Below are positions 485-20,124 of a DNA stretch of 21,755 bases, one piece after another. How positions within the stretch are numbered: position 1 is the stretch's first letter; every line of letters begins with the position of its first letter. The stretch comes from a virus. The stretch spans positions 1-21,755 of the IMG/VR virus record IMGVR_UViG_3300030382_001644. One strand, written 5' to 3'. Both the position numbers and the translations under genes were made by a program. The notes beneath the pieces are model-generated. The model searched no databases and was not told the DNA's origin. It saw nothing but the letters and a program-made list of their open reading frames with translations.

Positions 485-859
485 ATGACTAAAAAATCTA
501 AATTAAATGCACAAGCAATCAATGTACTTGTTGAGTACAGAACTGCTTTAGACATTAAGAATAGTATTGATAAGTTAGTATCTCAACTAAAGAATGAATT
601 TACTGAAATAGTAAATAATCATAAGTTAGTAAGTGATAAGAAAAACTTTGTCTTTGAATTTGGCAACGATACTTTCGCTATATCTCAAAGTCAAAGAGAT
701 ATACTTAACCAATCAGAAGTTAAAAAACTATTAACTTCTAAAAAACTTCCTATCCCTTATAAAACTTCAACTAGCATGACTATTAAAAATGTTAGTGGTA
801 GTGCTAATAATGTTGATAGTGAATTAGTTAGAATGTTGAAGGTGTCTAATGCCAGATAA
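485..859 (+). CDS. Hypothetical protein, 124 aa
   Basis: I do not recognise a family. The ATG follows a good ribosome-binding site (GAGG in AAAGAGGT, about six bases upstream). The protein is Lys/Asn/Ser-rich, with a helical first half (residues 8-50, a possible coiled coil around the IKNSIDKLVSQLKNEF segment) and a more polar second half. No signal peptide, membrane segment or catalytic motif is visible. It overlaps the next gene by 11 bases, so the two are probably translated together. Its place upstream of terL is where a small terminase subunit often sits, but I see no helix-turn-helix motif, so that role is not claimed. Codon use is very AT-rich, like the rest of the genome. Confidence 0.75.
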   Translation: MTKKSKLNAQAINVLVEYRTALDIKNSIDKLVSQLKNEFTEIVNNHKLVSDKKNFVFEFGNDTFAISQSQRDILNQSEVKKLLTSKKLPIPYKTSTSMTIKNVSGSANNVDSELVRMLKVSNAR

Positions 860-1088
860 TTATTTAGACATATTAAGACAAGCTAATGCTGTTGGTCAAG
901 TTAGACCAGACTCACTAATTGAAACAGTAGAGAATGGTCAAGAACAAGTTAATTGGCAGATGTTGGCTAGTTATTTAGATAGTAGTATATTTGAATTCAT
1001 ACTACAAAATAAAGACATACCACAAGTTAGTGCGTATGGTATAAAGTTAGCCCAAGAATTAGCTAACAACTTCAATATAAACAGATAA
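849..1088 (+). CDS. Hypothetical protein, 79 aa
   Basis: Small, acidic, mostly helical protein of unknown family. It starts inside the end of the upstream gene (11-base overlap in another frame), with a weak GAAGG Shine-Dalgarno six to eight bases upstream, so translational coupling is likely. No membrane segment, cysteine cluster or catalytic motif is seen. It is followed within ten bases by a strong hairpin (1097-1123) that probably ends the transcript. Together with the 485 gene it forms a two-gene cassette with duplicated non-coding DNA on both sides, which suggests an accessory unit rather than a core packaging gene. A small terminase subunit is possible only by position. Confidence 0.7.
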   Translation: MPDNYLDILRQANAVGQVRPDSLIETVENGQEQVNWQMLASYLDSSIFEFILQNKDIPQVSAYGIKLAQELANNFNINR

Positions 1089-1096
1089 TCTATTTC

Positions 1097-1123
1097 AGTA
1101 AGGGGGTTTGAAATCCCCTTACT
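1097..1123 (+). terminator. Terminator-like hairpin
   Basis: A 9-bp perfect stem, AGTAAGGGG (1097-1105) with CCCCTTACT (1115-1123), lies just after the stop codon of the 849 gene. The inner bases can extend the stem (G-T, T-A, T-A). No T run follows immediately; a pyrimidine-rich stretch with scattered T runs (1132-1150) does. This fits an imperfect intrinsic terminator or an RNA-stabilising 3' end hairpin. Confidence 0.6.
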
Positions 1124-1190
1124 TCCTCGCCTTTATTTAATTTCTTTTCTTATATTTAACTGGCTCGGTTTCAATCCAGGCAACTTCACC

Positions 1191-1218
1191 TGCAGCAGCC
1201 AGGATGCAGCAGCCTGGA
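1191..1218 (+). repeat. 14-bp tandem repeat before terL
   Basis: TGCAGCAGCCAGGA (1191-1204) is followed directly by TGCAGCAGCCTGGA (1205-1218), with 13 of 14 identical bases. It is GC-rich in an AT-rich genome. Short tandem repeats next to terminase genes are often recognition sites for the small terminase subunit, so this is a candidate packaging site (inference). Confidence 0.6.
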
Positions 1219-1310
1219 AGCGAGATGGCTTCAGGTTATTACAGTCATCATACTAATACATACTATATCTAGTAGTCCAAAGCACTTGGAGTCCCTACAT
1301 ATATTTCGTT

Positions 1311-1316
1311 TATAAT
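1311..1316 (+). promoter_or_regulatory. Putative promoter -10 box upstream of terL
   Basis: TATAAT at 1311-1316 matches the bacterial -10 consensus exactly. The best upstream partner is TTGGAG (1286-1291), a poor -35 with a 19-base spacer. It would give a leader of roughly 140 bases containing the AGTCTGA/TCAGACT stem-loop (1376-1400) before terL. Confidence 0.35.
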
Positions 1317-1375
1317 CCCAACGATTCTACGCCCTTTATCCCGTTCCTACCGTTACATTAGGAGCGTTGACCTTT

Positions 1376-1400
1376 AGTCTGAGTTTTGCACAGTCAGACT
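1376..1400 (+). promoter_or_regulatory. Stem-loop in the terL leader
   Basis: A 7-bp perfect stem AGTCTGA (1376-1382) / TCAGACT (1394-1400) with an 11-base loop, 64 bases before the chosen terL start. It has no following T run, so it is not an intrinsic terminator. Confidence 0.45.
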
Positions 1401-1464
1401 CACCCCCTTCACTACCAAAAACAAGTTGGTTGAAAAATTTTAAAAAAAATTGTACATACTAGGA

Positions 1465-2946
1465 ATGTCTTTGGATTTCGACACCACAAATCCTGAAGAA
1501 GCAAAAGCCTTAATGTTGAAGTTAGAACTTCGACATAAAGAATTAGATACTGCTACTAAAGCAAAAGAAAATTTTTTGGATTTTGTTAAGGCCGTATGGC
1601 CTGAGTTTATTTCAGGATACCATCATCAAAAAATTGCAGAAAAATTTCAGCTAATAAAAGATAAAAAATTGAAACGTTTAATCGTGAACATGCCACCAAG
1701 GCACACGAAGTCTGAGTTTGCATCCTATTTACTTCCAGCATGGATCATGGGCCATGCACCAAAAACCAAGATCATACAAGCGACACACACTGGCGAACTA
1801 GCCTTCCGCTTCGGAAGGAAAGTAAGAAACCTGATGGATCACGAAGATTATCAAAGAATATTCAAGGACGTTGAACTATCACAAGATTCTAAAGCAGCAG
1901 GTAGATGGGAGACTAATAAAGGAGGAGAATATTTCGCAACAGGTGTTGGAGGTGCAATCACAGGTCGTGGTGCAGATCTATTAATAATTGATGATCCTCA
2001 TTCCGAGCAAGATGCATTATCTGAGACGGCGTTCGATAATGCTTATGAGTGGTATACATCAGGTCCGAGACAAAGACTTCAACCCGGTGGTATCATTGTT
2101 ATTGTCATGACAAGGTGGTCTACCAAAGATTTGACAGGAAGATTAGTAGGAGCACAAAAAGAAGTTAAAGCAGATCAATGGGACATTATAGAATTTCCGG
2201 CAATCTTTCCAAAGTCTGGTAATCCTATATGGCCTGAGTATTGGAAGAAGGATGAACTGCTCTCCGTTAAAGCGTCACTGAATGAACAGAAGTGGCAAGC
2301 ACAATGGCAACAGGCACCCACTTCAGAAGAAGGATCTATAATCAAAAGAGAATGGTGGCAAAAATGGGAACCTGACTCCCCGCCCACTAACATACAACAT
2401 ATTATACAAAGTTATGATACGGCATATTCTAAAAAAGAAACAGCAGACTATAGTGCAATAACTACATGGGGTGTATTTACATCTGAAGCAGACGGGAAAG
2501 TTTATTTGATTTTACTTGATGCAGTTAAAGGTAGATGGGAGTTTCCTGAACTAAAGAGGAAAGCATTAGAGAAGTATAAAGAGTTTGAACCGGAGACAGT
2601 AATCATTGAGGCTAAAGCATCTGGATTACCCCTGACCCATGAACTAAGACAGATAGGAATTCCAGTTACGAACTTTACACCGAGCAAAGGAAATGATAAA
2701 CATGTAAGAGTAAACGCTGTAGCACCGGTATTTGAGGCAGGCCAAATTTGGGTTCCCGATAAGAGGTGGGCGCAAGAAGTCATTGAGGAATGTGCTGCCT
2801 TCCCTTTTGGTGATAACGATGATTATGTTGACTCAACCACCCAAGCTGTGTTACGTTTTCGCCAAGGAAATTTTGTTACATTACCTGATGATTATTACGA
2901 AGAACCAACTGTTCCTGATTACGGGAGCGAGGAGAGATATTACTAA
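1465..2946 (+). CDS. terL: Terminase large subunit (DNA-packaging ATPase/nuclease)
   Basis: The motor that translocates phage DNA through the portal into the prohead and cuts the concatemer. The N-terminal ATPase has a Walker A-like motif MPPRHTKSE (residues about 76-84), in the variant form common in TerL, and Walker B LLIIDDPHSE (about 172-181). The C-terminal RNase H-like nuclease has its acidic residues in SYDTAYS (D318), VIIEAKASG (E382) and DDYVDSTTQ (D452/D453/D456). The 493-aa length is normal. I chose the ATG at 1465; a TTG at 1450 is in frame but has no ribosome-binding site, and the ATG also lacks good spacing (AGGA lies next to it), so the start is uncertain. The stop overlaps the next ATG (TAATG), indicating coupled translation. 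No small terminase subunit was recognised nearby. Confidence 0.96.
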   Translation: MSLDFDTTNPEEAKALMLKLELRHKELDTATKAKENFLDFVKAVWPEFISGYHHQKIAEKFQLIKDKKLKRLIVNMPPRHTKSEFASYLLPAWIMGHAPKTKIIQATHTGELAFRFGRKVRNLMDHEDYQRIFKDVELSQDSKAAGRWETNKGGEYFATGVGGAITGRGADLLIIDDPHSEQDALSETAFDNAYEWYTSGPRQRLQPGGIIVIVMTRWSTKDLTGRLVGAQKEVKADQWDIIEFPAIFPKSGNPIWPEYWKKDELLSVKASLNEQKWQAQWQQAPTSEEGSIIKREWWQKWEPDSPPTNIQHIIQSYDTAYSKKETADYSAITTWGVFTSEADGKVYLILLDAVKGRWEFPELKRKALEKYKEFEPETVIIEAKASGLPLTHELRQIGIPVTNFTPSKGNDKHVRVNAVAPVFEAGQIWVPDKRWAQEVIEECAAFPFGDNDDYVDSTTQAVLRFRQGNFVTLPDDYYEEPTVPDYGSEERYY

Positions 2947-5900
2947 TGGATGATGAAAGACTCGGCAGACCTATAGGAATTAGTAGTTTATTTTTACAGA
3001 TAGGTAAAAAGAAAGCTGATATACAATTGGAACGAGGTGATATTACAAAAGATGAATATGATGAAATCATAAAAATTTTATATCCCCCTCTAAGTTTGGT
3101 TGATGATAAAAAGAATGGTGGTGTACCTAGATTTGCGTCTGGTTCGGCAACCATGGCCCCTGGACCATCTATAGATTTAGATGATATTTTAAGACGTCTT
3201 GGTAAGGTATCAAAGTTTATTGGTCCCGCATCAAAGTTTATTGGCACAAGAGTTCCTTTACTTAGTAATTTAATTACTAGTTCTGGAGCAGGTCAAGCTG
3301 AACTTGATTGGGAAAAATGGAATATGGCAAACAACATAGCCGAAGGTATTCCCGGCGTAGAAAACGCAGGTGATTTAAGTTCCGATCCTGAGGAAGTAGA
3401 GAGAAAAAGAAAAGAACGACAAGCAGCCTTAGATGAAGCAAGAAGAAACAAAGCAGCAGCGGCACAATCTGCCGGAATTAAAAAAGCTGCAGAAGAAGGT
3501 CAATATGCTGGTGTAGATGGAATGATTAACAAAGCAATGCAATGGACACCAGAAGGTTGGGTGTCTGGTCCAGATCTACCAGAAGAAGAATCTTTAGAAG
3601 AATGGAAGAAAAAAAACATTTTATCAACTCCAATAAATCCACCATTAACAAAAGAAGATTTAATTCCTGGTGGAGGATTTAAACCAATAGATCCAGAAGA
3701 TATACCTCGAAACACAGGGGAGCCAATACCTCCAATTGAATTACCAACACATACAGGATCTCCAATACCGGAGATAGAATTACCTACTATTTTAACCATG
3801 GCAGGACAGAAACCTAAAATAACTCCTGAAATGACAGAGGAAGTCTTTGAAACATTAGATGATTATTTTATTAAAGATAAAGATGGAAAAATTATTAGCA
3901 CGACAGTAGGTCCTGAAAGAGACATTATTAAGAAAACCATATCAGATGTTGTTGATAAATATGGTGTAGATAAAGCTATAAGAGGTTCAGTTGTCCAAAG
4001 ATTTTTAGAACAAGCATTAAAAAATAAGCAAGTTACTAAAGAAAATTATGATATTTATTTAAAGTACAGAGATAAATCAGCAGTAAGTAAAATTAATCCT
4101 GCTAATATTGAAAGAACAAGAATATCAAAGGAAACAAGTTTATTAAAAGGACAAAAACTTTTAGAAGTTGCACAAGAAATTGAAGCAAAAAATAAAAAAG
4201 ATGACCCTAACAGTATAACAGGATTTACTCATCAGCAACTATTAGAAGAAGCTACTAAAAAATATCCTACTCTTTTTTCTAATACTAATGCTTTTGAATA
4301 TGCTGGTACACATTCATTACATATGAAACCTTTTTTAGAAGCTGTTCCAGAAGTAAAAAAATATTTATCAGGTCCTGGTAAATTTGGATCTGAGAGAATA
4401 ACAGAAAATTACACTGTAGCAAAAGGTCAACCAAGAATGGATATTAAATTTCGTGGTTTTGTATCACAAAATAAAGATCTATTCCCCGGAGCTCAAGGAG
4501 ATACAATTGGAACCCAAAAAGAAAAATCTAGATTTTTATATTATGTTTTAAGTGGAATGAGAGGAGGCAATGCTGCTATTAGGAGTGGAGATTATGAAGA
4601 AGCCTTAGAAACTTTTGAAGAATTTTTCCCTGGAGGTTTTAATAGTTTAAGTGATAAGTCTGGTCCTAGTGAATTAAAAGATCAATTTATTAAATTTAAA
4701 GCAAAGGATGATGTTAGATACAAACTAATGAATTTAAACCAAGGACAAGGAGAAGTTCTTCCTGACAATCCTCATAACATAAGACCTTTCTTACAAGAAG
4801 TATTTGGAGAAAATGTTAAATTAAACATGGCCCATGATTTTGAAAGAGGTATAGTTAGAAAAGAAAATGCATTACAATCTTTTGCAGATAAAGGAGGAGA
4901 TGCTTCTTTTATTAATATTGATCTTGATGTAGTTAATACTCAAATTCAACCAGAAATAGAAAAAGAAATTAGAAAACTAGAAAATATAGAAGCAGAAGAA
5001 TTATCTAAACCTAATCCTAATCAAGATATTCTTGATGGAATTGATTTTAAAGTTAAAAAATTAGAAGAAAAACTTGTTGGAATAGGAGGACAAGGATTAT
5101 CTAAGTATGGTCAAATAGGACAATCTATTCCTTTTTATGATAAATTAAATCAAATTATTGATGAATATAATATTAAAGCAGAAATGGAAGGTAGACCTTC
5201 TGCAATGAAAAAATATCCTAATTTAAAAAATGCTTTAGAACTTTTAAAAAAAGGAGATGGTAAAAATACTTACGCAGATGGTGGAACACTTAAATTTAAT
5301 GATGGTAGCAGACTTAATGATTATGATCCTTATGACATTAATCAATTTCAAATGGGACAGTTCCCAAGTTATGAAAGTTTATACGGGGATCAAGGAAAGT
5401 TTCCTGTTAAAGAAGAATATATAGAAGCAGCAAGAGCCAAGGCTCTTGAAGAAGGAAAAAAATATTACGGGGACGCTACTCAATTTGAAATCTTTAAAGA
5501 TGGACTATTCAATATGCCTGATGGTTTTATTAACTATCTTGCAGGTTCGGCTGAAGGAATAGGTGAATTAGGAATGGGTTTATTTGAAGCCACTAAAAAA
5601 GGTTTACAGATGCAAACTTTTCCTACAGACCAAATAGCTAATCTTGATAAAAGAAACATTTCTAAATCATCTCCAGACTATTCTCCTTTTAGTGATAAGT
5701 TTCAAGCTCTTTTAGATGCTCCTGCTTTCACTAAATATATGGGTGAATTTAGAGGAAAGATTCCAAGACCTAATTTAGCAGATGAAAAAATATCTGGACT
5801 TAGTATGGATGAGTTCGGTGAGAAGATTGGTTATTACACAGGTCCTCCTACAGCAGTATTAACAGCTCCTTATACTCTAGGTAAAATGCTAACTGGTGCT

Positions 5901-8552
5901 TCCAAAGCATCTAAGGCAACAAAAACACCAATAAGTGAAGTATCTAAATTAGCAGATGAAGAAATAGTTACTCCTCTTTCTAAAGTAGATGAAGCTGTAG
6001 AAGAGACAATAGAAGTTACTCCAAAAAGAACAGAAACAAAAACAATAGCTGAACCAGAAATTCAAATTGAAAAACCAAAATTAGATCCAAAAGAAGTAGA
6101 GAGAGCTAATTCATTAGATACTTATATAGCCCCAAGATGGAGTAAAGTTGATGAGTATGTTCAAACTAAATATTCAGGTAGTGCTTCTAAATCAAAGAAA
6201 AAATTAAGTAAGTGGAAAAAAGAATTAGAAGATGCAGACGGAGCTAATTTAAAAACTGAAATGAAAGACAACGGAATGTCTTTCCAAATAGGTAAACTTA
6301 TTGAAGAAGGCGGAGATGAAACAATTGATGCAGTACAATTTTTAAATCTTACTCAAGAATTACTAGGTAGAAATAATCAAATTAAAAGAGGATATAGTGA
6401 GTTTGTAGGGGCTGATCAATTAGGTAATCTTACAGGAGCTGCTAAAGTAGGAACAGAAATTACTCCTGATGCTACAAGACAAGTAGTATCTGCAGCTAAA
6501 TCTGAATTAGCTAACATTCCTGTTACAGCTACAGGAAAAACAGGTCGTGTTTTACAAGAATATAAAATGGCTGTTCAAAGCATGATAGACGAATTAGAAG
6601 TACTAGCAGGAGGAACAAGTAAAAGAACATTTAAAGGAACTGAAAATCCAAGTCTTATTATAGACAAGTACACAAAACAAATTTTACCTAACATTTTAAA
6701 GAAAGCAAAAAATCCTAATATTAATTTACTTTATACAGAAGCACAAAAAATGAATGGGTTAGTAGATAGATTTAAACGTCTTAATGTTAATCCACGATTA
6801 AGTAGTAGTTTTAAAGATACCGGGTGGCCAGGGACCAGGACGGAAGATTATAGTATTATTGAACAAGGTTTCACTCCTCAGAAAGGACAAGCCTCTCGTC
6901 ATGAAGCACATAACACGGGACACCCAAGTTCACCGAATGCTGTTTCTTGGAGTAGATCTATAGATAAAACAACTACTGATGGTAGAGTTACAGAAAATAT
7001 TATGGAGGCACAAAGTGATGTTCACCGTGCAACAAAATCTTATAGAAGCCCGGAAGATTTAGAAGGTATTAATATACTAGAAAATGCAGAAAAAAAATTA
7101 AAACCACAAGCAGATAAAGCATTAGATGATGCGTGGAATCAATTTACAGCAGATCATAAATTATATAAGTTTGATACTGATCCAATTAATATGCCTGCAG
7201 AAACCATGGTTCCTGATATGTTTGAAATACAACTTAAATCAGGGACAGCAGATAATCCTATCTGGGAAGTAATAAATACAAGAACAAAAAGAAAAGTTCC
7301 AAAGAAAAGTTTTGGTACTGAAGATGATGCACAAATATTTGCTGATGCAAAAACTAAATTAGAATGGGCTAATCAAAAGAAGAAACCACAGCCTACAGGA
7401 TTTGATGTTAAACTAGACCAAGTATCAAATGATTTATTTCAAGTTCCTTTTAAAAGTTTAAAGAAATCCCAACAACAAAATGTAAAACGAGCTATATTAG
7501 ATAACTACGGAACTGTTAATCAAAAGATGATTGATGAAGCAAATGAATTTTTAAGTGGACTTACCACAGCTTCTAAAAAAGAATTAGGAAAAGCTAGAAA
7601 TCCAAACTTCTTAAATGCACAAAGAATATCAAAATTAGAAGTAGGAGATTCTGCTTTTGGTAATTATGATAAATTCTGGTCTCGTAAAATGTCAACAGGA
7701 GAAGAGGGACAAAAATCATTAATTGAACGTCTTGCAAATATGGATGAATTACCTAGATCCGCACAAAATATGCCTGAATCTTCTACTTCAAGAGTTCAAT
7801 CTAAAATTAAAGAAATATTAGATAATGCTCAAGGAGGTAAAGTAACAGAAGGACCTTTTGCAGGAGTAGATGCGTTTACTGCTATTAAAGCAGAAATAAC
7901 ACAAAGCACAGGATTACCTGTAGAAGAATTTTTAGCCCGAGTATTTCCTGATGAAGTTAAATTTTCTGGTTCGTATGCAGATATATCAAAGAACGCAAAA
8001 TTACGAAGAAAACGATATGAAGAAGGTTCTCAAGATTATCCATTTAAAAAACAAAAAGATTGGGTTAAGAATGTTTTAAAATCACATATTGAAAAAGCAA
8101 TATCAGAAGGTAAGACCAATGTATCATGGAACCCTGGTGAGATTGTAGGTGTGTATGAATCAGCTAATGCGAAAGATATTATAGGATATAAAACAATATA
8201 TAATAAACTTATGGTAGAAGCTGCAGAAGATTTAAATAAAGATTTAGTTGCTCGTGCAATAAAATTAGGAATTGATCCAGATAAAGCTAAAATAAAAGTA
8301 TCGGGTGTAGGAGAAGATATGAATTTTACATTACAATTTGATCCAAGTAATTATCAAGGGTATAAATCTGGTGCTCCTGATCTTGTTAATACTTCTTTTG
8401 ATAAATCAAAAATGGAAGTATCAGGATTACCTTATGTTGATTTTAGTGAGTCAATAGATATAATAAGAAAAATAGGTTTACCACAGCACGCAGATGGTGG
8501 TAGAGTAGGTTCTAAATTACCTGATATAGATGAAATGATAGGAACATTATAA
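2946..8552 (+). CDS. Giant polyvalent-type protein, 1868 aa
   Basis: Very large multidomain protein between terL and the portal, overlapping both by one base (TAATG). Visible parts: an Ala/Arg/Lys-rich helix (about 150-180); a tandem 13-residue proline-rich repeat TG(E/S)PIP(P/E)IELPT (257-282); a mixed alpha module ending in YADGGTLKF (776-784); Gly/Ala-rich hydrophobic stretches (about 859-885 and 966-990); a long helical middle; and a C-terminal region (about 1290-1840). That last region contains MEAQSDVHRAT (1353-1363) and NVSWNPGE (1725-1732), which I recognise as a degenerate form of the EEIQSDWHQ ... W-x-x-G(E) core found in phage polyvalent proteins. It ends with HADGGRVG (1848-1855). 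Polyvalent proteins are thought to travel in the particle and enter the host with the DNA; that role here is inference. It has no tape-measure-like repeats and no enzyme could be assigned. Confidence 0.9.
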   Translation: MDDERLGRPIGISSLFLQIGKKKADIQLERGDITKDEYDEIIKILYPPLSLVDDKKNGGVPRFASGSATMAPGPSIDLDDILRRLGKVSKFIGPASKFIGTRVPLLSNLITSSGAGQAELDWEKWNMANNIAEGIPGVENAGDLSSDPEEVERKRKERQAALDEARRNKAAAAQSAGIKKAAEEGQYAGVDGMINKAMQWTPEGWVSGPDLPEEESLEEWKKKNILSTPINPPLTKEDLIPGGGFKPIDPEDIPRNTGEPIPPIELPTHTGSPIPEIELPTILTMAGQKPKITPEMTEEVFETLDDYFIKDKDGKIISTTVGPERDIIKKTISDVVDKYGVDKAIRGSVVQRFLEQALKNKQVTKENYDIYLKYRDKSAVSKINPANIERTRISKETSLLKGQKLLEVAQEIEAKNKKDDPNSITGFTHQQLLEEATKKYPTLFSNTNAFEYAGTHSLHMKPFLEAVPEVKKYLSGPGKFGSERITENYTVAKGQPRMDIKFRGFVSQNKDLFPGAQGDTIGTQKEKSRFLYYVLSGMRGGNAAIRSGDYEEALETFEEFFPGGFNSLSDKSGPSELKDQFIKFKAKDDVRYKLMNLNQGQGEVLPDNPHNIRPFLQEVFGENVKLNMAHDFERGIVRKENALQSFADKGGDASFINIDLDVVNTQIQPEIEKEIRKLENIEAEELSKPNPNQDILDGIDFKVKKLEEKLVGIGGQGLSKYGQIGQSIPFYDKLNQIIDEYNIKAEMEGRPSAMKKYPNLKNALELLKKGDGKNTYADGGTLKFNDGSRLNDYDPYDINQFQMGQFPSYESLYGDQGKFPVKEEYIEAARAKALEEGKKYYGDATQFEIFKDGLFNMPDGFINYLAGSAEGIGELGMGLFEATKKGLQMQTFPTDQIANLDKRNISKSSPDYSPFSDKFQALLDAPAFTKYMGEFRGKIPRPNLADEKISGLSMDEFGEKIGYYTGPPTAVLTAPYTLGKMLTGASKASKATKTPISEVSKLADEEIVTPLSKVDEAVEETIEVTPKRTETKTIAEPEIQIEKPKLDPKEVERANSLDTYIAPRWSKVDEYVQTKYSGSASKSKKKLSKWKKELEDADGANLKTEMKDNGMSFQIGKLIEEGGDETIDAVQFLNLTQELLGRNNQIKRGYSEFVGADQLGNLTGAAKVGTEITPDATRQVVSAAKSELANIPVTATGKTGRVLQEYKMAVQSMIDELEVLAGGTSKRTFKGTENPSLIIDKYTKQILPNILKKAKNPNINLLYTEAQKMNGLVDRFKRLNVNPRLSSSFKDTGWPGTRTEDYSIIEQGFTPQKGQASRHEAHNTGHPSSPNAVSWSRSIDKTTTDGRVTENIMEAQSDVHRATKSYRSPEDLEGINILENAEKKLKPQADKALDDAWNQFTADHKLYKFDTDPINMPAETMVPDMFEIQLKSGTADNPIWEVINTRTKRKVPKKSFGTEDDAQIFADAKTKLEWANQKKKPQPTGFDVKLDQVSNDLFQVPFKSLKKSQQQNVKRAILDNYGTVNQKMIDEANEFLSGLTTASKKELGKARNPNFLNAQRISKLEVGDSAFGNYDKFWSRKMSTGEEGQKSLIERLANMDELPRSAQNMPESSTSRVQSKIKEILDNAQGGKVTEGPFAGVDAFTAIKAEITQSTGLPVEEFLARVFPDEVKFSGSYADISKNAKLRRKRYEEGSQDYPFKKQKDWVKNVLKSHIEKAISEGKTNVSWNPGEIVGVYESANAKDIIGYKTIYNKLMVEAAEDLNKDLVARAIKLGIDPDKAKIKVSGVGEDMNFTLQFDPSNYQGYKSGAPDLVNTSFDKSKMEVSGLPYVDFSESIDIIRKIGLPQHADGGRVGSKLPDIDEMIGTL
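3714..3791 (+). repeat. Tandem 39-bp coding repeat (proline-rich)
   Basis: Two adjacent 13-codon units inside the giant gene encode TGEPIPPIELPTH and TGSPIPEIELPTI, with three differences. At the protein level this is a short extended proline-rich linker between the N-terminal helical part and the following module. Confidence 0.7.
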
Positions 8553-10939
8553 TGGCAATAGATAAAGCATTACCAAATATGGCTCCAGGGGAGTTAGATC
8601 CTCTTGGTGTAGCCGCTGAGCAATCAGAAATTAATGTAGAATTAACTGATGATGGGGGAGCACTAATTAATGAAATGGAAGAACAACCGCAATTACCTTT
8701 TGATGGTAATTTAGCAGAAGTAGTTGGAGAAGATGAATTAGGTAAAATGTCAGATAGCCTAAGGGCTTATTATGAAGATGATAAATCATCAAGACAAGAT
8801 TGGGAAAGATCTTATGTTGATGGTATTAAATTATTAGGATTTAAATATGAAGAACGAGCTAGACCTTTTCAAGGAGCTAGTGGAGTTACTCATCCATTAC
8901 TTGCTGAATCAGCAACACAATTTCAAGCGCAAGCTTATAAAGAATTACTACCAGCAGGTGGTCCGGTAAAATGTAATATAGTTGGAGAACAAAATGAAGA
9001 AAGTGAACAACAAGCCAACAGAGTAAAAGATTACATGAATTATCAGATTACTACTATTATGGAAGAATACGATCCGGATATGGATCAATTATTATTTCAT
9101 TTAGGGTTAGCTGGTTCTGCATTTAAAAAAGTTTATTTTGATGCTCAGGAACAAAGAGCTAAAGCTTCTTTTATTCCTGTAGAAGATTTAATAGTTCCTT
9201 TTTATGCAACCGATTTAGAATCAACTCAAAGAGTTACTCATATAGTTAAACAATCATATAATGAAGTTAGAAAAAATCAGGTAGGAGGTTTTTATAGAGA
9301 TGTAGAAATTAGACCTTCCTTAATTGATGATGATCAAATACAACAAGAATATCAAAACATACAAGGTATTAGTTCTACTACTTATGGTGAAGAAGATGAT
9401 AATGAATATACTTTATTAGAGTTTCATTGTGATTTAGACATACCCGGATTCGAAGATAGGAATTTGGAAACAGGAGACGCAACAGGTATAAGATTACCTT
9501 ACGTTGTTACTGTAGATGAAGGTTCAGGAAAAGTTTTATCAATATATAGAAATTTTAGAGAAGATGATCAGCTGCGTAAAAAGATACAATATTTTGTACA
9601 TTATAAGTTTCTCCCTGGTCTTGGTTTTTATGGCTTTGGTCTTATACACATGCTCGGGGGTCTCTCCAGGACAGCTACGTCAGCCCTCCGTCAACTCATT
9701 GATGCTGGTACGTTGTCCAATCTCCCTGCAGGTTTTAAAGCAAGAGGGTTGCGAGTTGCAGACGACGATAACCCAATCCAACCCGGAGAATTCAGGGATG
9801 TAGATGCACCATCTGGTGATCTAAGAGCAGGGTTATTACCATTACCTTACAAAGAACCATCACAAACTTTATTTTTACTTTTAGGTTTTTGTGTGGATGC
9901 AGGAAAAAGATTTGCGTCTGTTGCAGATGCGAAGATAGCTGATTCTAATCAAGCTAATCCTGTAGGAACTACAATGGCTATGATTGAACAAGGCACTAAA
10001 GTTATGAGTGCTATACATAAAAGATTACACTATGCACAAAAAGTAGAATTTAAATTATTAGCAAAAGTATTTCAACAGTATTTACCGCCAGAATATCCTT
10101 ACAATGTAGTTGGTGGACAAAGAAATATTAAACAAACAGATTTTGATGATCGTGTTGATGTTATACCGGTAAGTGATCCAAATATATTTTCTATGTCTCA
10201 ACGTATTCAGTTGGCACAAGCACAATTACAATTAACAGGAGCTAATCCTGGAATTCATAATATTTATGAAGCTTATAGAAGAATGTATCAAGCACTTGGA
10301 GTTAATAATATTGATGCAGTATTACCACCTCCACCTAAACCTGGACCTGTGGATCCTGCAAAAGAAAATTCAGAAGCATTAAAATCTAAACCATTAACTG
10401 CTTATCCAGAACAAAATCATGAGGCACATATAAAAGCACATAGAGCTTTTATGTCCTCTAGTTTGGTTCGACAAAGTTTAATTGCTATGGCAGCTTTACA
10501 ATCTCATATTAGTGAGCATATTTCATTCATGGCAAGACAACAAGTGATGGAAAAGAACAAACAAGAGTTAGAACAACTTCAACAACAGTTAGGTGGACAA
10601 CAATTACCTCCTGAACTACAAAAAGAGATGCAAGTTAGACTGGAAAGTGAAATTGCAGAAGTAGAATCAACCATAACTGAAGAAATTGTAGCAGAAGAAC
10701 AAGAATATTTAGAAGGAACTGGAGAAGATCCACTAATTAACTTAAAACAACAAGAAATTGACATAAAAGAGCAAGATGCACAACGTAAGGCACTCTATGA
10801 CAAAGAAAAATTAGAGATAGATCGTGATAAATTAGATCAAAAGACTGAAATTGATCAGAAAAAACTGAATCAAGACGCTGAAATTGCTGCTATGAGAGCC
10901 GGTGTTAATCTAAAACAATCAAAAATGAGAAAAAAGTAA
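8552..10939 (+). CDS. Portal protein
   Basis: Forms the dodecameric ring at the capsid vertex through which TerL pumps DNA and to which the tail attaches. At 795 aa it is long, like portals of T7-like and many uncultured marine phages. Supporting stretches are SRQDWERSYVDGIKLLGFK followed by FQGASGVTHPLLAE near residues 85-125, and FLPGLGFYGFGLIHMLGG (about 353-370) followed by SALRQLIDAGTLSNLPAGFK, a hallmark of this portal group. A PPPPKPGP linker sits near 591, and a Gln/Glu/Lys-rich coiled coil fills about 650-795. The ATG overlaps the upstream stop by one base and the stop overlaps the next ATG in the same way. Codon use is anomalously GC-rich at 9601-9780 only. The assignment rests on recognised conserved stretches and position after terL. 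Confidence 0.9.
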   Translation: MAIDKALPNMAPGELDPLGVAAEQSEINVELTDDGGALINEMEEQPQLPFDGNLAEVVGEDELGKMSDSLRAYYEDDKSSRQDWERSYVDGIKLLGFKYEERARPFQGASGVTHPLLAESATQFQAQAYKELLPAGGPVKCNIVGEQNEESEQQANRVKDYMNYQITTIMEEYDPDMDQLLFHLGLAGSAFKKVYFDAQEQRAKASFIPVEDLIVPFYATDLESTQRVTHIVKQSYNEVRKNQVGGFYRDVEIRPSLIDDDQIQQEYQNIQGISSTTYGEEDDNEYTLLEFHCDLDIPGFEDRNLETGDATGIRLPYVVTVDEGSGKVLSIYRNFREDDQLRKKIQYFVHYKFLPGLGFYGFGLIHMLGGLSRTATSALRQLIDAGTLSNLPAGFKARGLRVADDDNPIQPGEFRDVDAPSGDLRAGLLPLPYKEPSQTLFLLLGFCVDAGKRFASVADAKIADSNQANPVGTTMAMIEQGTKVMSAIHKRLHYAQKVEFKLLAKVFQQYLPPEYPYNVVGGQRNIKQTDFDDRVDVIPVSDPNIFSMSQRIQLAQAQLQLTGANPGIHNIYEAYRRMYQALGVNNIDAVLPPPPKPGPVDPAKENSEALKSKPLTAYPEQNHEAHIKAHRAFMSSSLVRQSLIAMAALQSHISEHISFMARQQVMEKNKQELEQLQQQLGGQQLPPELQKEMQVRLESEIAEVESTITEEIVAEEQEYLEGTGEDPLINLKQQEIDIKEQDAQRKALYDKEKLEIDRDKLDQKTEIDQKKLNQDAEIAAMRAGVNLKQSKMRKK

Positions 10940-12045: not shown

Positions 12046-12257
12046 TGCCATTTAAATCAGAGAAACAAAGAAAATATCTTTGGGCTAATGAACCAGAAAT
12101 TGCAAAAAAATGGTCTAAGGAATATGGTAGTTCCATTAATGCGAAAGATGGTGTAAATCTTTCACAACTTAGAAAAAATTCTAAAAATCCAAAAGGGGTT
12201 GCAAAAGGTTGTGGTCTTGTAATGGAAGATAGAAGAAAGGAAACAAAGTATGCCTAA
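12045..12257 (+). CDS. Conserved small basic protein, 70 aa
   Basis: Begins MPFKSEKQRKYLWANEPEIAKKW and ends GCGLVMEDRRKETKY. Both ends match a small protein that I recall as very widespread in marine phages and often next to head and lysis genes; its function is unknown. It is strongly basic, with no membrane segment. The start overlaps the upstream stop (TAATG) and the end overlaps the lysozyme gene by eight bases, so the three are likely co-translated. Confidence 0.85.
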   Translation: MPFKSEKQRKYLWANEPEIAKKWSKEYGSSINAKDGVNLSQLRKNSKNPKGVAKGCGLVMEDRRKETKYA

Positions 12258-12687
12258 TTTAGCAGAAAGAGTCATGGAACATGAAGGGTTCGTTAATAAA
12301 ATTTATAAAGATACCCTAGGTTTTGCCACAATTGGTTTTGGTCATAAGGTAACTGAATCTGATAATTTTGAAGAAGGAGTAGAATACTCTAGAGAAGAAT
12401 TAGAAAAGGTATTTCATCACGATTTAGAACACGCACAATTATTATGTGAAAAAATGTTTATGTGTGATTTAAGTTATGATCCTCCTGAATTATTAAGGGA
12501 CATTTATACAGAAATGATTTTTCAACTTGGCCCTGGTGGAGTCTCCAAGTTTAAAAAAACATTTGATTATGTTAAACTTAAACAATTTAAAGATGCAAGT
12601 ATTGAGATGCTCGATTCGAGATGGAATAAGCAAACCCCTAACAGGGCAAAAGCTTTAAGTGATTTAATGGCTTCTGTTGAAGCATGA
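12250..12687 (+). CDS. T4-type lysozyme (endolysin, muramidase)
   Basis: Cleaves the beta-1,4 bond between N-acetylmuramic acid and N-acetylglucosamine in peptidoglycan to release progeny. Alignment by eye with T4 lysozyme gives the catalytic triad Glu12 (EHEG), Asp21 (IYKDT) and Thr27 (FATIGFGH), plus the conserved SRWNKQTPNRA (123-133). At 145 aa it is slightly shorter than T4 lysozyme (164 aa). No signal peptide is present, so it needs a holin to reach the wall, consistent with the membrane-protein genes just upstream. AAAGGAAA lies about nine bases upstream of the ATG. Its TGA overlaps the next ATG (ATGA). Confidence 0.95.
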   Translation: MPNLAERVMEHEGFVNKIYKDTLGFATIGFGHKVTESDNFEEGVEYSREELEKVFHHDLEHAQLLCEKMFMCDLSYDPPELLRDIYTEMIFQLGPGGVSKFKKTFDYVKLKQFKDASIEMLDSRWNKQTPNRAKALSDLMASVEA

Positions 12688-12863: not shown

Positions 12864-13059
12864 TCCAGTGATCATTTTAGTTGAAAGACTAAGAAAAGAA
12901 ATAAAGACTAGACAAGAGCAGCTAACTCAAGTTATAACAGGAGATGTGAAGGAACTTATCACATATAAGTATGTGTTAGGACAACTTCATGCTTGGAATA
13001 AAATAGATCAGGAACTCACGAACCTGCTAAAAAAACAGGAGCTAGATGACGATGAATAA
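12856..13059 (+). CDS. Small helical hypothetical protein, 67 aa
   Basis: All-helical, coiled-coil-like protein (LVERLRKEIKTRQEQLTQVI, then YKYVLGQLHAWNKIDQELTNLLKK) with an acidic tail ELDDDE. It overlaps the genes on both sides (8 and 14 bases). AAGGAAA lies about eight bases upstream of its ATG. It comes just before the GroES-like gene; small helical proteins of this look occur at this place in marine phages from memory. Function unknown; no enzyme or DNA-binding motif is visible. Confidence 0.8.
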   Translation: MPDPVIILVERLRKEIKTRQEQLTQVITGDVKELITYKYVLGQLHAWNKIDQELTNLLKKQELDDDE

Positions 13060-13474
13060 AACTAATGTAATCCCTACAAAAGTTTTTGCCTTAGAAAAAA
13101 AGAATAAAGAGAAAAAAGATACCAGAACAGAACTAGAAAAACTACCTGATCCTTGTGGTTGGAGAATAGTTGTAATGCCTTTAAAAATTAAAGAAAAAAC
13201 TAAAGGTGGAGTATTACTAACAGATAAAGTTGTTGAAGAAAGTCAATGGACTACAAATGTTGGGTTGGTAATGAAAGTTGGAGATTTATGCTATTTAGAT
13301 AAGATAAAATTTCCTACTGGTCCATGGTGTAAAGAGAAAGATTGGATACTCTTCGGTAGATATGCTGGAGCAAGAATTAAAATCGACGGTGGAGAACTAA
13401 GGATACTTAATGATGACGAAGTTATGGGCATTGTAAAGAAACCTGAAGATGTCTTATCACCGCTAACAAACTAA
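13046..13474 (+). CDS. GroES-like co-chaperonin (Cpn10 fold)
   Basis: Likely caps host GroEL to help fold capsid proteins, as T4 gp31 does. The GroES fold spans about 33-130: WRIVVMPLKIKE (the strand like GroES LHDRVIVKR), TKGGVLLTD (52-60, corresponding to the GroEL-binding mobile loop with its GGIVL element), NVGLVMKVGD (71-80), WILFGRYAGARIKIDGGELRILNDDEVMGIV (strands and the C-terminal motif like SESDILAIV). It differs from bacterial GroES by a Lys-rich extension of about 30 residues at the N-terminus and a short Cys/Trp-containing insertion (81-99). AGGAG sits four bases before the ATG at 13046; an in-frame ATG at 13052 is possible. It lies directly upstream of the scaffold and capsid genes. 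The match is by motif only, with no search done. Confidence 0.85.
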   Translation: MTMNKTNVIPTKVFALEKKNKEKKDTRTELEKLPDPCGWRIVVMPLKIKEKTKGGVLLTDKVVEESQWTTNVGLVMKVGDLCYLDKIKFPTGPWCKEKDWILFGRYAGARIKIDGGELRILNDDEVMGIVKKPEDVLSPLTN

Positions 13475-18020: not shown

Positions 18021-18584
18021 ATGAGACTACTGTTCTTATTACTATGTTTTATACTAGTATTGAGTGCAATCACTAGCGCTAAAGGTGCAGACACCAATAC
18101 GGTGTCTAGCACCGTAGTGACGGATAAAAGTGTACCTACTGCAAATGCACCAAGCGTCGTGGTCAACAATTCAGACATCTGTAAGACAGCGGCGTCGACC
18201 GCGGTTCAAACACAAATCCTCGGAATTGCGTCGGGAATTACAATCACTGATGAAAACTGTGAAAGAATAAAATTATCACGATCACTTTACTCGATGGGTA
18301 TGAAGGTAGCTGCAGTGTCAACATTATGTGCTGATCCTCGAGTTTTTGATGCTATGCATATGGCAGGAACTTATTGCCCTTACATGGGCGCTATTGGTAA
18401 AGAAGCCGAAGAAGGATGGAAAGAAAATCCTGACATGGTACCTGAAGGATCATTAGTATTTAAAAAAATAGAAATTGAACAAAAAGAATTAAAAACAACT
18501 GGATTAACGGATGGAGAAAAACTTGCGAAATTTATTTTATTTGGCATGGCTATGCACTCTGGCATTGTGGCCTTCTTCCCTTAA
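18021..18584 (+). CDS. Exported Cys-containing protein, 187 aa
   Basis: Has a clear N-terminal signal peptide (MRLLFLLLCFILVLSAITSAKGA, cleavage probably at 20-23), so it should be sent to the periplasm, unusual for a virion gene region. The mature part has Cys54, Cys80, Cys103 and Cys119, enough for two disulfides, and the segment DENCERIKLSRSLYSMGMKVAAVSTLCADPRVFDAM-x-MAGTYCPYMG region is one I recall as conserved in marine phages. The C-terminal stretch KLAKFILFGMAMHSGIVAFFP (about 168-187) is hydrophobic and may anchor it. The ATG touches the preceding stop; no ribosome-binding site is seen. The last 74 bases also encode the start of the next gene in another frame. Confidence 0.85.
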   Translation: MRLLFLLLCFILVLSAITSAKGADTNTVSSTVVTDKSVPTANAPSVVVNNSDICKTAASTAVQTQILGIASGITITDENCERIKLSRSLYSMGMKVAAVSTLCADPRVFDAMHMAGTYCPYMGAIGKEAEEGWKENPDMVPEGSLVFKKIEIEQKELKTTGLTDGEKLAKFILFGMAMHSGIVAFFP

Positions 18585-20124
18585 AGCAGAATGTCCTGTT
18601 ACAGCAACAGGATTATGTACTCCAGGTGTAGAAGAAACAATTGTCATAGATGAAGTAGAAACAATTGAATATGAGGCTGATGGTTATACCGTAACTACAG
18701 AAACAACGACTACAACCACAACAGTAACGACAACAAATCCGGATTCAGGAGATATTCTTGATGGAGATAATGGATACGTTTCATCAAAATTTGAAGGGGA
18801 TATGGATGTTGACTGGGGAGGTCAAGGTCCGGCAACAATGCCTTCTGGTAATTCTTGTTATAATCTAGGAACAGATAAGTGTGCTCAAATTACTGGATCA
18901 GGTAATTCAACATCAACAATGGGTGTATCAGGAATGGGTACAACATTTGTTAATACAATAGATATATCAGAACTTGATATAGAAAATGGAGGAAGAACTA
19001 ATTATTCAATAAAAGTAGATAAACAGGATGCACAAGATCGTATCTATATGCATATCACAGGTAAAGATGGAAATACGTCTGTATTTAGTGGAACAGATAT
19101 ATTATCAGAATCAGGTGTAGCAAGTGGTTATCAAACTTATGAGAGTGGTTTTGATTTTGCAGGAACAATTACAACTCTTGTAATTGAAGTTGGTGGACGT
19201 GATATTAATTTGGCAATCGGACCGCTATTTGATGATATACAAATAAATGTATTATACAACGTAGTTTCAACCATCGTTACAGAACATATACTTAGTGTTG
19301 AAATGTGGGTAGCTTATGGAGGAAGTACAGAAACAGAAATAATAGATATTGTAGAAAATATTATTGATCATAATGATATGATAGAAACACCTGAGGGTGA
19401 TATGTATTTTGAACCAGAATTTGATGAACCAAATATGGATATGTCTTATGAAACTGTAGAGATAGAAATGGAATTTGAAATGCCTAATATTGATATGGAA
19501 GAAGTAGAAGTAGCAACATTAGAGTATGAAATGGAATTAGAAATGGAAATGGATTTAGAAATGCCTGAACCGGAAATGGAAACCCCAGTAGAAATTGAAG
19601 TTGACACTGAACCAGAAATAGAAGAACCTGTAGTAGAAGAAACCGAAATGGAAACAGAGGAGGTATCAAATGAACCTACTGAAGAATCTAATGAAGAGCC
19701 TCAAGAAGATATGGCAGAAGAGCCAGAGCCTGAAGAAAGCTCATCAGAGACTACTGAAGATGAGGCTGAGGAAGAAAAAGTAGAAGAAAAGCAGGAAGAA
19801 CCTAAAAAAGAAGAAGAAAAAAAGGAACCAGAATCTAAAAAGGAAAAAGCTGCTAAAAAGATCGTTAAAAAGATGGGGGATAAAGGTAGATATGATTCAA
19901 CAAATCAGTTAAAAACATTAATAGTTATGCAAGTTCTAGGTAATACTAAAACTTTTTTTGACTCACAAAAACAATTAAATGATCGAGAAGGATTTTTTAC
20001 AGATATGATAATACCTGATACCCAACTAAAAAATAATAATCTTGCACAATACTACCTTTTTGCAGGCAGTGATGGTTTAATGAATGAAATGATAGACAGC
20101 CAATGGCAGACGGATTCGGAGTAG
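18511..20124 (+). CDS. Secreted acidic repeat protein, 537 aa
   Basis: Signal peptide MEKNLRNLFYLAWLCTLALWPSSLKA followed by ECP, cleavage expected after residue 26. Then: a Thr-rich tract (60-75), a globular beta-rich domain (about 80-290) with DILDGDNGYVSSKFEGDMDVDWGGQGPA-type sequence and KVDKQDAQDRIYMHI, a very acidic Met/Glu/Pro-rich region (about 290-445), a Lys-rich stretch (about 430-460), and a conserved C-terminal domain (about 450-537, RYDSTNQLKTLIVMQVLG...). It starts inside the end of the upstream gene (74-base overlap) with no ribosome-binding site, and the next in-frame Met (about 98) would lose the signal peptide. Export to the periplasm is the main inference; it may be an adhesin-like or envelope-modifying factor, or part of the virion. 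Confidence 0.85.
   Translation: MEKNLRNLFYLAWLCTLALWPSSLKAECPVTATGLCTPGVEETIVIDEVETIEYEADGYTVTTETTTTTTTVTTTNPDSGDILDGDNGYVSSKFEGDMDVDWGGQGPATMPSGNSCYNLGTDKCAQITGSGNSTSTMGVSGMGTTFVNTIDISELDIENGGRTNYSIKVDKQDAQDRIYMHITGKDGNTSVFSGTDILSESGVASGYQTYESGFDFAGTITTLVIEVGGRDINLAIGPLFDDIQINVLYNVVSTIVTEHILSVEMWVAYGGSTETEIIDIVENIIDHNDMIETPEGDMYFEPEFDEPNMDMSYETVEIEMEFEMPNIDMEEVEVATLEYEMELEMEMDLEMPEPEMETPVEIEVDTEPEIEEPVVEETEMETEEVSNEPTEESNEEPQEDMAEEPEPEESSSETTEDEAEEEKVEEKQEEPKKEEEKKEPESKKEKAAKKIVKKMGDKGRYDSTNQLKTLIVMQVLGNTKTFFDSQKQLNDREGFFTDMIIPDTQLKNNNLAQYYLFAGSDGLMNEMIDSQWQTDSE

What the first reader, a model, noticed from the sequence alone, without database searches (positions are those of the whole stretch)
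2946..8552. 1868-aa polyvalent-type protein between TerL and portal
An unusually large protein sits within the most conserved packaging gene pair, sharing one base with each neighbour. Its C-terminal region (about 1290-1840) carries MEAQSDVHRAT and NVSWNPGE, which I read as a degenerate EIQSDWHQ ... W-x-x-G-E core known from phage and element polyvalent proteins. Its position suggests it is loaded with the DNA or attached to the portal. The degenerate core may mean a changed or lost activity.
Basis: partly seen in the sequence, partly recalled or inferred. Interest (0 to 1): 0.7.

Follow-up and report, generated by a model that had tools for sequence, protein, structure and literature searches.

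The report
Giant swappable phage cargo-type protein
A marine phage carries, between its DNA-packaging motor gene and its portal gene, a 1868-residue protein whose tail end is a distant relative of a domain found in large phage proteins thought to be injected into bacteria, while its middle has been swapped wholesale between close relatives, so this spot may be a loading bay for exchangeable phage effectors.

Summary
ORF 2946-8552 encodes 1868 aa. It shares one base (TAATG) with TerL and with portal, a layout kept in IMG/VR relatives.

The polyvalent reading is largely right. Two C-terminal blocks (around EAQSDVH, and PFKK..SWNPGE) each match a profile of 76 phage proteins with the canonical EIQSDWHQ core (E 1e-7 and 7e-5; scores about twice the best of 60 shuffles; same order). 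Some canonical proteins carry ART-PolyVal, LPD39 or InPase; Pfam and NCBIfam hold no model of the core itself.

"Lost activity" is not shown: the core is altered (W to V, Q to R, GR..G lost) but under strong purifying selection.

New: residues ~312-765 are replaced by unrelated sequence in relatives whose C-terminus is 76-86% identical. The TerL-portal interval is a variable slot: gap under 300 bp in 16 of 62 TerL-selected relatives, an ORF in 45. Of 12 slots with an ORF of at least 1000 aa, 9 carry an EIQSD-type core. Other slot giants add ART-PolyVal or a cell-wall hydrolase.

Most likely a virion-carried, injected polyvalent-type protein with an exchangeable effector. No proteomics places it in a particle; a GNAT-like fold is weakly supported.

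The parts
1450..2946 (+). Terminase large subunit (TerL); last base shared with the giant's ATG
   Evidence: phrog_38 E 1.7e-114, Terminase_6C 4.7e-12; TAATG junction
2946..8552 (+). The 1868-aa giant protein
   Evidence: ORF; 15 relatives
2946..3275 (+). Conserved N-terminal region, residues 1-110
   Evidence: Matches L003 (1-132) and L008 (1-311) by phmmer; dN/dS about 0.3 against both
3879..5240 (+). Exchanged central module, residues about 312-765
   Evidence: No similarity to L003 or L008 at this place although both flanks match; no relative found in viral contigs; no Pfam domain
5265..5318 (+). Right border of the exchanged module, around YADGGTLKFNDGSRLN (residues 774-791)
   Evidence: phmmer similarity resumes at residue 766 (L003) and 773 (L008); GG and GSRLNDYDPYDINQF invariant in A1
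5283..6815 (+). Conserved region of unknown function, residues 780-1290
   Evidence: A1, A5; AlphaFold model poor
6885..7082 (+). Core block A, residues 1314-1379, with EAQSDVH at 1354-1360 (7005-7025)
   Evidence: hhalign to 76 canonical EIQSDWHQ proteins E 9.9e-8, score 49.0; best of 60 shuffles 20.3
7101..8030 (+). Long insertion within the core, residues 1386-1695, where canonical cores have a much shorter helical insert
   Evidence: Position between the two hhalign blocks; canonical model helices 148-215
8037..8141 (+). Core block B, residues 1698-1732, YPFKKQKDW..SWNPGE
   Evidence: hhalign E 6.8e-5, score 35.7; best of 60 shuffles 18.9; 164 columns to the L243/L270/L275/L290 group E 5.8e-5
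8487..8549 (+). C-terminal tail HADGGRVGSKLPDIDEMIGTL
   Evidence: Invariant HADGGRVG in relatives; aligned by hhalign with the tail of the L243 group
8552..10939 (+). Portal protein; first base shared with the giant's stop codon
   Evidence: phrog_1216 E 2.1e-52; TAATG junction

Best explanation
The protein is a polyvalent-type cargo protein, encoded and probably co-translated with TerL and portal (TAATG at both ends), held in or at the head and delivered into the host cell with the DNA. Its N-terminus and its C-terminal part, which holds a divergent EIQSD core, form the constant carrier; the middle (residues about 312-765) is an exchangeable effector module. Shown: gene layout, homology of the core, exchange of the middle, variability of the slot, purifying selection, and polyvalent or cell-wall-hydrolase domains in slot proteins of related phages. 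Inferred: presence in the virion, injection, effector role of the middle, and the role of the core (perhaps a GNAT-like fold, active or turned into a docking domain).
For: Core homology in two blocks, through intermediates and by window HMM hits to canonical proteins at E 2e-5. Middle replaced wholesale while flanks stay 76-86% identical. Slot empty, small or giant in relatives, and 9 of 12 slots with an ORF of at least 1000 aa carry an EIQSD-type core. Same slot elsewhere holds ART-PolyVal plus core (L048), cell-wall hydrolase plus core (L300), LPD23 (L178), PcfJ (DSL-LC04). In phage PH1 the core is fused to a conserved protein encoded directly after portal. dN/dS 0.02-0.42 in the core blocks. 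Iyer et al. (PMC5512222) argue that phage polyvalent proteins encoded with virion genes are packaged and injected.
Against: No virion proteomics of any carrier was found. The window protein itself has no named polyvalent or enzymatic domain. A slot can be empty, so the protein is not needed for head assembly in general, but that alone does not show injection. The model of the window region is too poor to use.
Confidence: 0.55

Rival explanations
1. It is an assembly or structural protein of the head (an internal core, scaffold-like or portal-bound protein) that stays in the particle or is lost at maturation, and is not an injected effector.
For: Position between TerL and portal, one-base overlaps with both; N-terminus and C-terminus conserved; a related core in PH1 is fused to a protein encoded next to portal.
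Against: Related phages have an empty or tiny slot (16 of 62 gaps under 300 bp), so no conserved assembly role; the middle is replaced wholesale; slot proteins elsewhere carry ART-PolyVal, LPD23 or a cell-wall hydrolase.
Confidence: 0.2
2. It is an intracellular protein made late in infection that never enters the particle, for example one acting on host functions or on the packaging motor.
For: No proteomics shows it in a virion; the core could be enzymatic.
Against: Domain company and position match the pattern of virion-packaged polyvalent proteins (PMC5512222); expression timing of the slot genes could not be read (supplements not open).
Confidence: 0.18
3. The resemblance to the EIQSDWHQ core is chance, and the protein is an unrelated orphan.
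For: Pfam and tblastn do not link them; the canonical HMM does not pick up the giant at E 1e-3; the window profile has low diversity.
Against: Two independent blocks in the same order, scores 49.0 and 35.7 against shuffled maxima 20.3 and 18.9; the window HMM finds canonical proteins at E 2e-5; chain window to L243 group 5.8e-5, L243 group to L157 group 3.9e-7 to 1e-5, L157 group to canonical 5e-11.
Confidence: 0.07

Closest known systems
Phage polyvalent proteins (Iyer et al. 2017, PMC5512222)
   Same: Very large multi-region protein encoded among head/packaging genes of a portal-terminase phage; C-terminal core shared with proteins that carry ART-PolyVal, LPD39 or InPase; fast exchange of domains
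   Different: No named polyvalent domain in the window protein itself; its core is not one of the Pfam LPD models
Canonical EIQSDWHQ-core phage giants (unnamed in Pfam/NCBIfam; part of phrog_7348)
   Same: Blocks A and B in the same order; several lie in the same TerL-portal slot (L030, L043, L047-L049, L057 and others)
   Different: W to V and Q to R in the motif, GR..G lost, about 310-residue insertion between the blocks instead of a shorter helical insert
Slot genes of HTVC023P-type pelagiphages (HTVC027P gp41/gp42; 023Pt_psg01; DSL-LC04)
   Same: Same interval between homologous TerL (61-67% identity) and portal (47-51%)
   Different: The slot proteins themselves show no detectable similarity to the window giant; two ORFs or other domains (HTH, PcfJ)
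MuF-effector and T4 Alt-type head-carried effectors (as described in PMC5512222)
   Same: Comparison of how it might work: effectors carried on a head protein and delivered with the DNA
   Different: No MuF domain found in the window protein and no ART-PolyVal match in the window record

Membership tests
Phage polyvalent protein | Two or more domains of different activity in one polypeptide | tested here: inconclusive
   Modular anatomy is clear but no second domain could be identified
Phage polyvalent protein | Contains at least one catalogued polyvalent domain (LPD, ART-PolyVal, PBECR, InPase and so on) | tested here: not met
   No Pfam or NCBIfam match in P0001
Phage polyvalent protein | Encoded with virion or packaging genes of a portal-terminase phage | tested here: met
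   TerL upstream, portal downstream, one-base overlaps
Phage polyvalent protein | Packaged in the virion and injected | not testable with these tools
   Needs proteomics; none found
EIQSDWHQ-core family | Block A around EIQSDWHQ | tested here: met
   hhalign E 9.9e-8, score 49.0 vs shuffled max 20.3; motif altered to EAQSDVHR
EIQSDWHQ-core family | Block B PFKK..W..W-x-x-G-E after block A | tested here: met
   hhalign E 6.8e-5, score 35.7 vs shuffled max 18.9
EIQSDWHQ-core family | GR..GY following the motif | tested here: not met
   EAQSDVHRATKSY in the window, EAQSDVHRGSTSY in relatives; canonical G140, R141, G144
GNAT acyltransferase | GNAT fold in the canonical core | tested here: inconclusive
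   Strand/helix order fits; best PDB match SpNatD prob 0.89 but E 0.055, TM-scores about 0.2-0.3; no sequence match in the PDB
GNAT acyltransferase | CoA-binding (Q/R)xxGx(G/A) loop in the window protein | tested here: not met
   No such loop after EAQSDVH

The most novel reading that the evidence does not exclude
The TerL-portal interval of this broad phage group is a dedicated cargo bay. Proteins encoded there are placed at the portal vertex, by coupled translation and/or through a docking version of the EIQSD core, and the central module is exchanged like a cassette, so that the phage changes its first-strike effector without changing the carrier.
Probability: 0.25. Interest if true: 0.75.

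Novelty: new variant of a known kind. Interest (0 to 1): 0.52.

Why it matters
[quoted passage not shown] A fixed, recognisable slot with an exchangeable module gives a simple way to list candidate injected effectors across aquatic phages. It also ties a widespread but unnamed domain (the EIQSDWHQ core) to head genes, which can be tested in the cultured phage PH1.

Tried and rejected
(1) A glycine-glycine motif as a shared packaging tag. A[DNESRK]GG[RLVIAGTKS] looked strongly enriched in slot proteins, also in a held-out set with a pre-stated test (1.25 vs 0.107 per 1000 aa). With one sequence per homologous cluster it falls to 0.31 vs 0.27, because most hits come from one cluster of 45 related ORFs; the Fisher values are therefore not usable. 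Rejected as a general tag. (2) By eye, window 1059-1150 resembled the module upstream of the core in canonical giants; hhalign gave E 0.053, so rejected. (3) A nuclease-like (HNH) reading of the exchanged module had no support. (4) PH1's upstream gene is labelled 'putative TerL' in GenBank, but PHROGs calls it portal (phrog_156); PH1 is portal-giant, not TerL-giant-portal, and was not counted as the same slot. (5) AlphaFold of window 774-1868 gave pLDDT 44, so no fold search was run on it. (6) Literature searches for EIQSD and for virion proteomics of relatives gave nothing usable.

Full report
OBSERVATION. ORF 2946-8552 (+) encodes 1868 aa. Its neighbours are TerL (1450-2946; phrog_38 E 1.7e-114) and portal (8552-10939; phrog_1216 E 2.1e-52). 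Both junctions read TAATG with one shared base. The window is a whole IMG/VR record of 21,755 bases, probably a fragment of a genome. A scan of viral contigs gave 15 relatives; wherever the flanks are present the order is TerL-giant-portal.

ANATOMY. Alignment A1 and phmmer split the protein sharply. Residues 1-132 and 193-286 match L003, and 1-311 match L008. Residues 766/773-1868 match both with more than 1700 bits. Nothing matches in between. The middle (about 312-765) is therefore a wholesale replacement, with unrelated sequence of a different length in the window, in L003/L002 and in the L008 group. The left border is a proline-rich repeated linker and the right border is YADGGTLKFNDGSRLND. 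The window's version of the module has no relative in viral contigs by the pattern search and no Pfam domain.

THE CORE. Their ORFs are mostly large, up to 4073 aa, some cut by contig ends. Of these, 76 were aligned and compared by hhalign with the window family. Block A (around EAQSDVH) scores 49.0 (E 9.9e-8) and block B (YPFKKQKDW..SWNPGE) 35.7 (E 6.8e-5). The best of 60 column shuffles score 20.3 and 18.9. The window HMM also finds canonical proteins directly at E 2e-5. Intermediates in the same slot of other contigs help to close the gap: window to the L243/L270/L275/L290 group 5.8e-5 (score 44.6; shuffled max 24.7), that group to the L157 group 3.9e-7 to 1e-5 depending on direction, and the L157 group to canonical 5e-11. 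The direct link of the L243 group to canonical is weak (0.0016). In the window version E, QSD, H, Y, PFK, W, K and G are kept, while the W of EIQSDWH, the following Q and the GR..G are changed.

NOT A RELIC. NG86 dN/dS in blocks A and B is 0.02-0.11 between L008 and L004/L005, and 0.22-0.42 between the window and its relatives. Yardsticks for L008/L004 are about 0.12 for portal and 0.05 for part of TerL (from the dN and dS). The 'degenerate' core is thus among the best-kept parts of the protein.

WHAT THE CANONICAL CORE IS. Pfam and NCBIfam have no model for it. Of 26 long canonical proteins, 3 carry ART-PolyVal, 1 InPase and 1 LPD39. A model of a canonical core from 74 sequences is good (pLDDT 84). 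Its BFVD matches (E down to 1e-21) are large phage proteins, some named as polyvalent or lytic transglycosylase proteins. The element order after residue 87 is strand-strand-strand(EIQSD)-helix[helical insert]-helix-strand(TTG)-helix(FYDK)-strand-strand, which I read as GNAT-like. The best PDB match is the GNAT SpNatD (prob 0.89), and other GNATs recur in the list, but E is 0.055 and TM-scores are about 0.2-0.3. I give GNAT-like about 0.45, and CoA-dependent activity of the window version about 0.15.

THE SLOT. Two surveys that were not selected for the core were made. In 62 TerL-selected loci with both genes visible, the gap is under 300 bp in 16, and 45 have at least one ORF of 100 aa or more; gaps reach 6.1 kb. 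A portal-selected set gives the same picture. Eight TerL-selected slots have an ORF of at least 1000 aa; 7 of these carry an EIQSD-type core (3 by HMM, 4 by the EIQSD string plus group-level hhalign). The portal-selected set has 5 such slots, 3 with the core by HMM. One contig is in both, which makes 9 of 12. Slot contents elsewhere include ART-PolyVal plus core (L048), cell-wall hydrolase plus core (L300), LPD23 (L178), PcfJ (DSL-LC04) and HTH matches. Cultured or named relatives: HTVC027P has two ORFs of 483 and 892 aa, 023Pt_psg01 two of 615 and 751, HTVC023P one of 201, and in Roseobacter CRP-901/902 TerL and portal matches overlap.

A FUSION CLUE. Pseudoalteromonas phage PH1 has a core protein of 1299 aa (canonical HMM E 2.5e-23) starting on the last base of its portal gene (labelled TerL in GenBank, phrog_156 portal). 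From about residue 417 it is 37-42% identical to proteins of Edwardsiella KF-1, Vibrio VPMS1 and Dickeya Amaethon phages that lack a match to the core part. In KF-1 that gene also overlaps its upstream neighbour by one base and lies just before a small ORF and the tailspike gene. Some records call it 'tail tape measure'. I infer an internal or ejection-type virion protein, but its function is unproven (phrog_21759, unknown function).

INTERPRETATION. The parts fit a virion-carried, injected polyvalent-type protein with a constant carrier and an exchangeable effector. The steps from 'encoded with the head genes' to 'in the particle' to 'in the host' are inference from the pattern described by Iyer et al. 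(PMC5512222). The window protein fails one tested feature of the formal polyvalent class (a catalogued domain), so I describe it as polyvalent-type, a new variant, not a proven member.

LIMITS. Relatives of the window family are few and similar, so its profile has low diversity. The 9-of-12 figure counts contigs, some of which are related, and 4 of the 9 rest on a short motif plus group-level profile matches. All homology beyond the close relatives is by profile only.

Noticed in passing
slot ORFs such as L252:6105-8378, L257, L260, L266, L272, L298: Many marine slot ORFs end in A[SDG]GG[LI]A.[ML]LGE, and partner ORFs end in a GP.PE.GPN.QGL..L tail. Most belong to one cluster of 45 related ORFs, so the tails may simply be inherited.
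   Followed up: partly
KX365747.1 35582-37417 (L303:5872-7707): Annotated 'putative TerL' in GenBank, but PHROGs gives portal protein (phrog_156, E 2.4e-98).
   Followed up: yes
L300:12453-16553: A slot giant combines a cell-wall hydrolase domain (PF07486, above cut-off) with an EEIQSDMHQ core.
   Followed up: partly
L019:10344-12821 (-), phage DSL-LC04: The slot protein carries a PcfJ domain (PF14284, E 5.2e-9), a domain known from conjugative elements.
   Followed up: no
L014:2273-7003: The giant is broken into several frames in this contig, either by sequencing errors or by real decay.
   Followed up: no
window 13046-13474: Probable co-chaperonin GroES, judged by the same place in related phages where it is so annotated.
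   Followed up: no
window 12250-12687: Looks like a T4-lysozyme-type endolysin (MEHEGFVNKIYKDTLGFATIGFGH), by eye only.
   Followed up: no
window 18511-20124: 537-aa protein with a long acidic Glu/Met/Pro-rich stretch; its start overlaps the preceding ORF in another frame.
   Followed up: no
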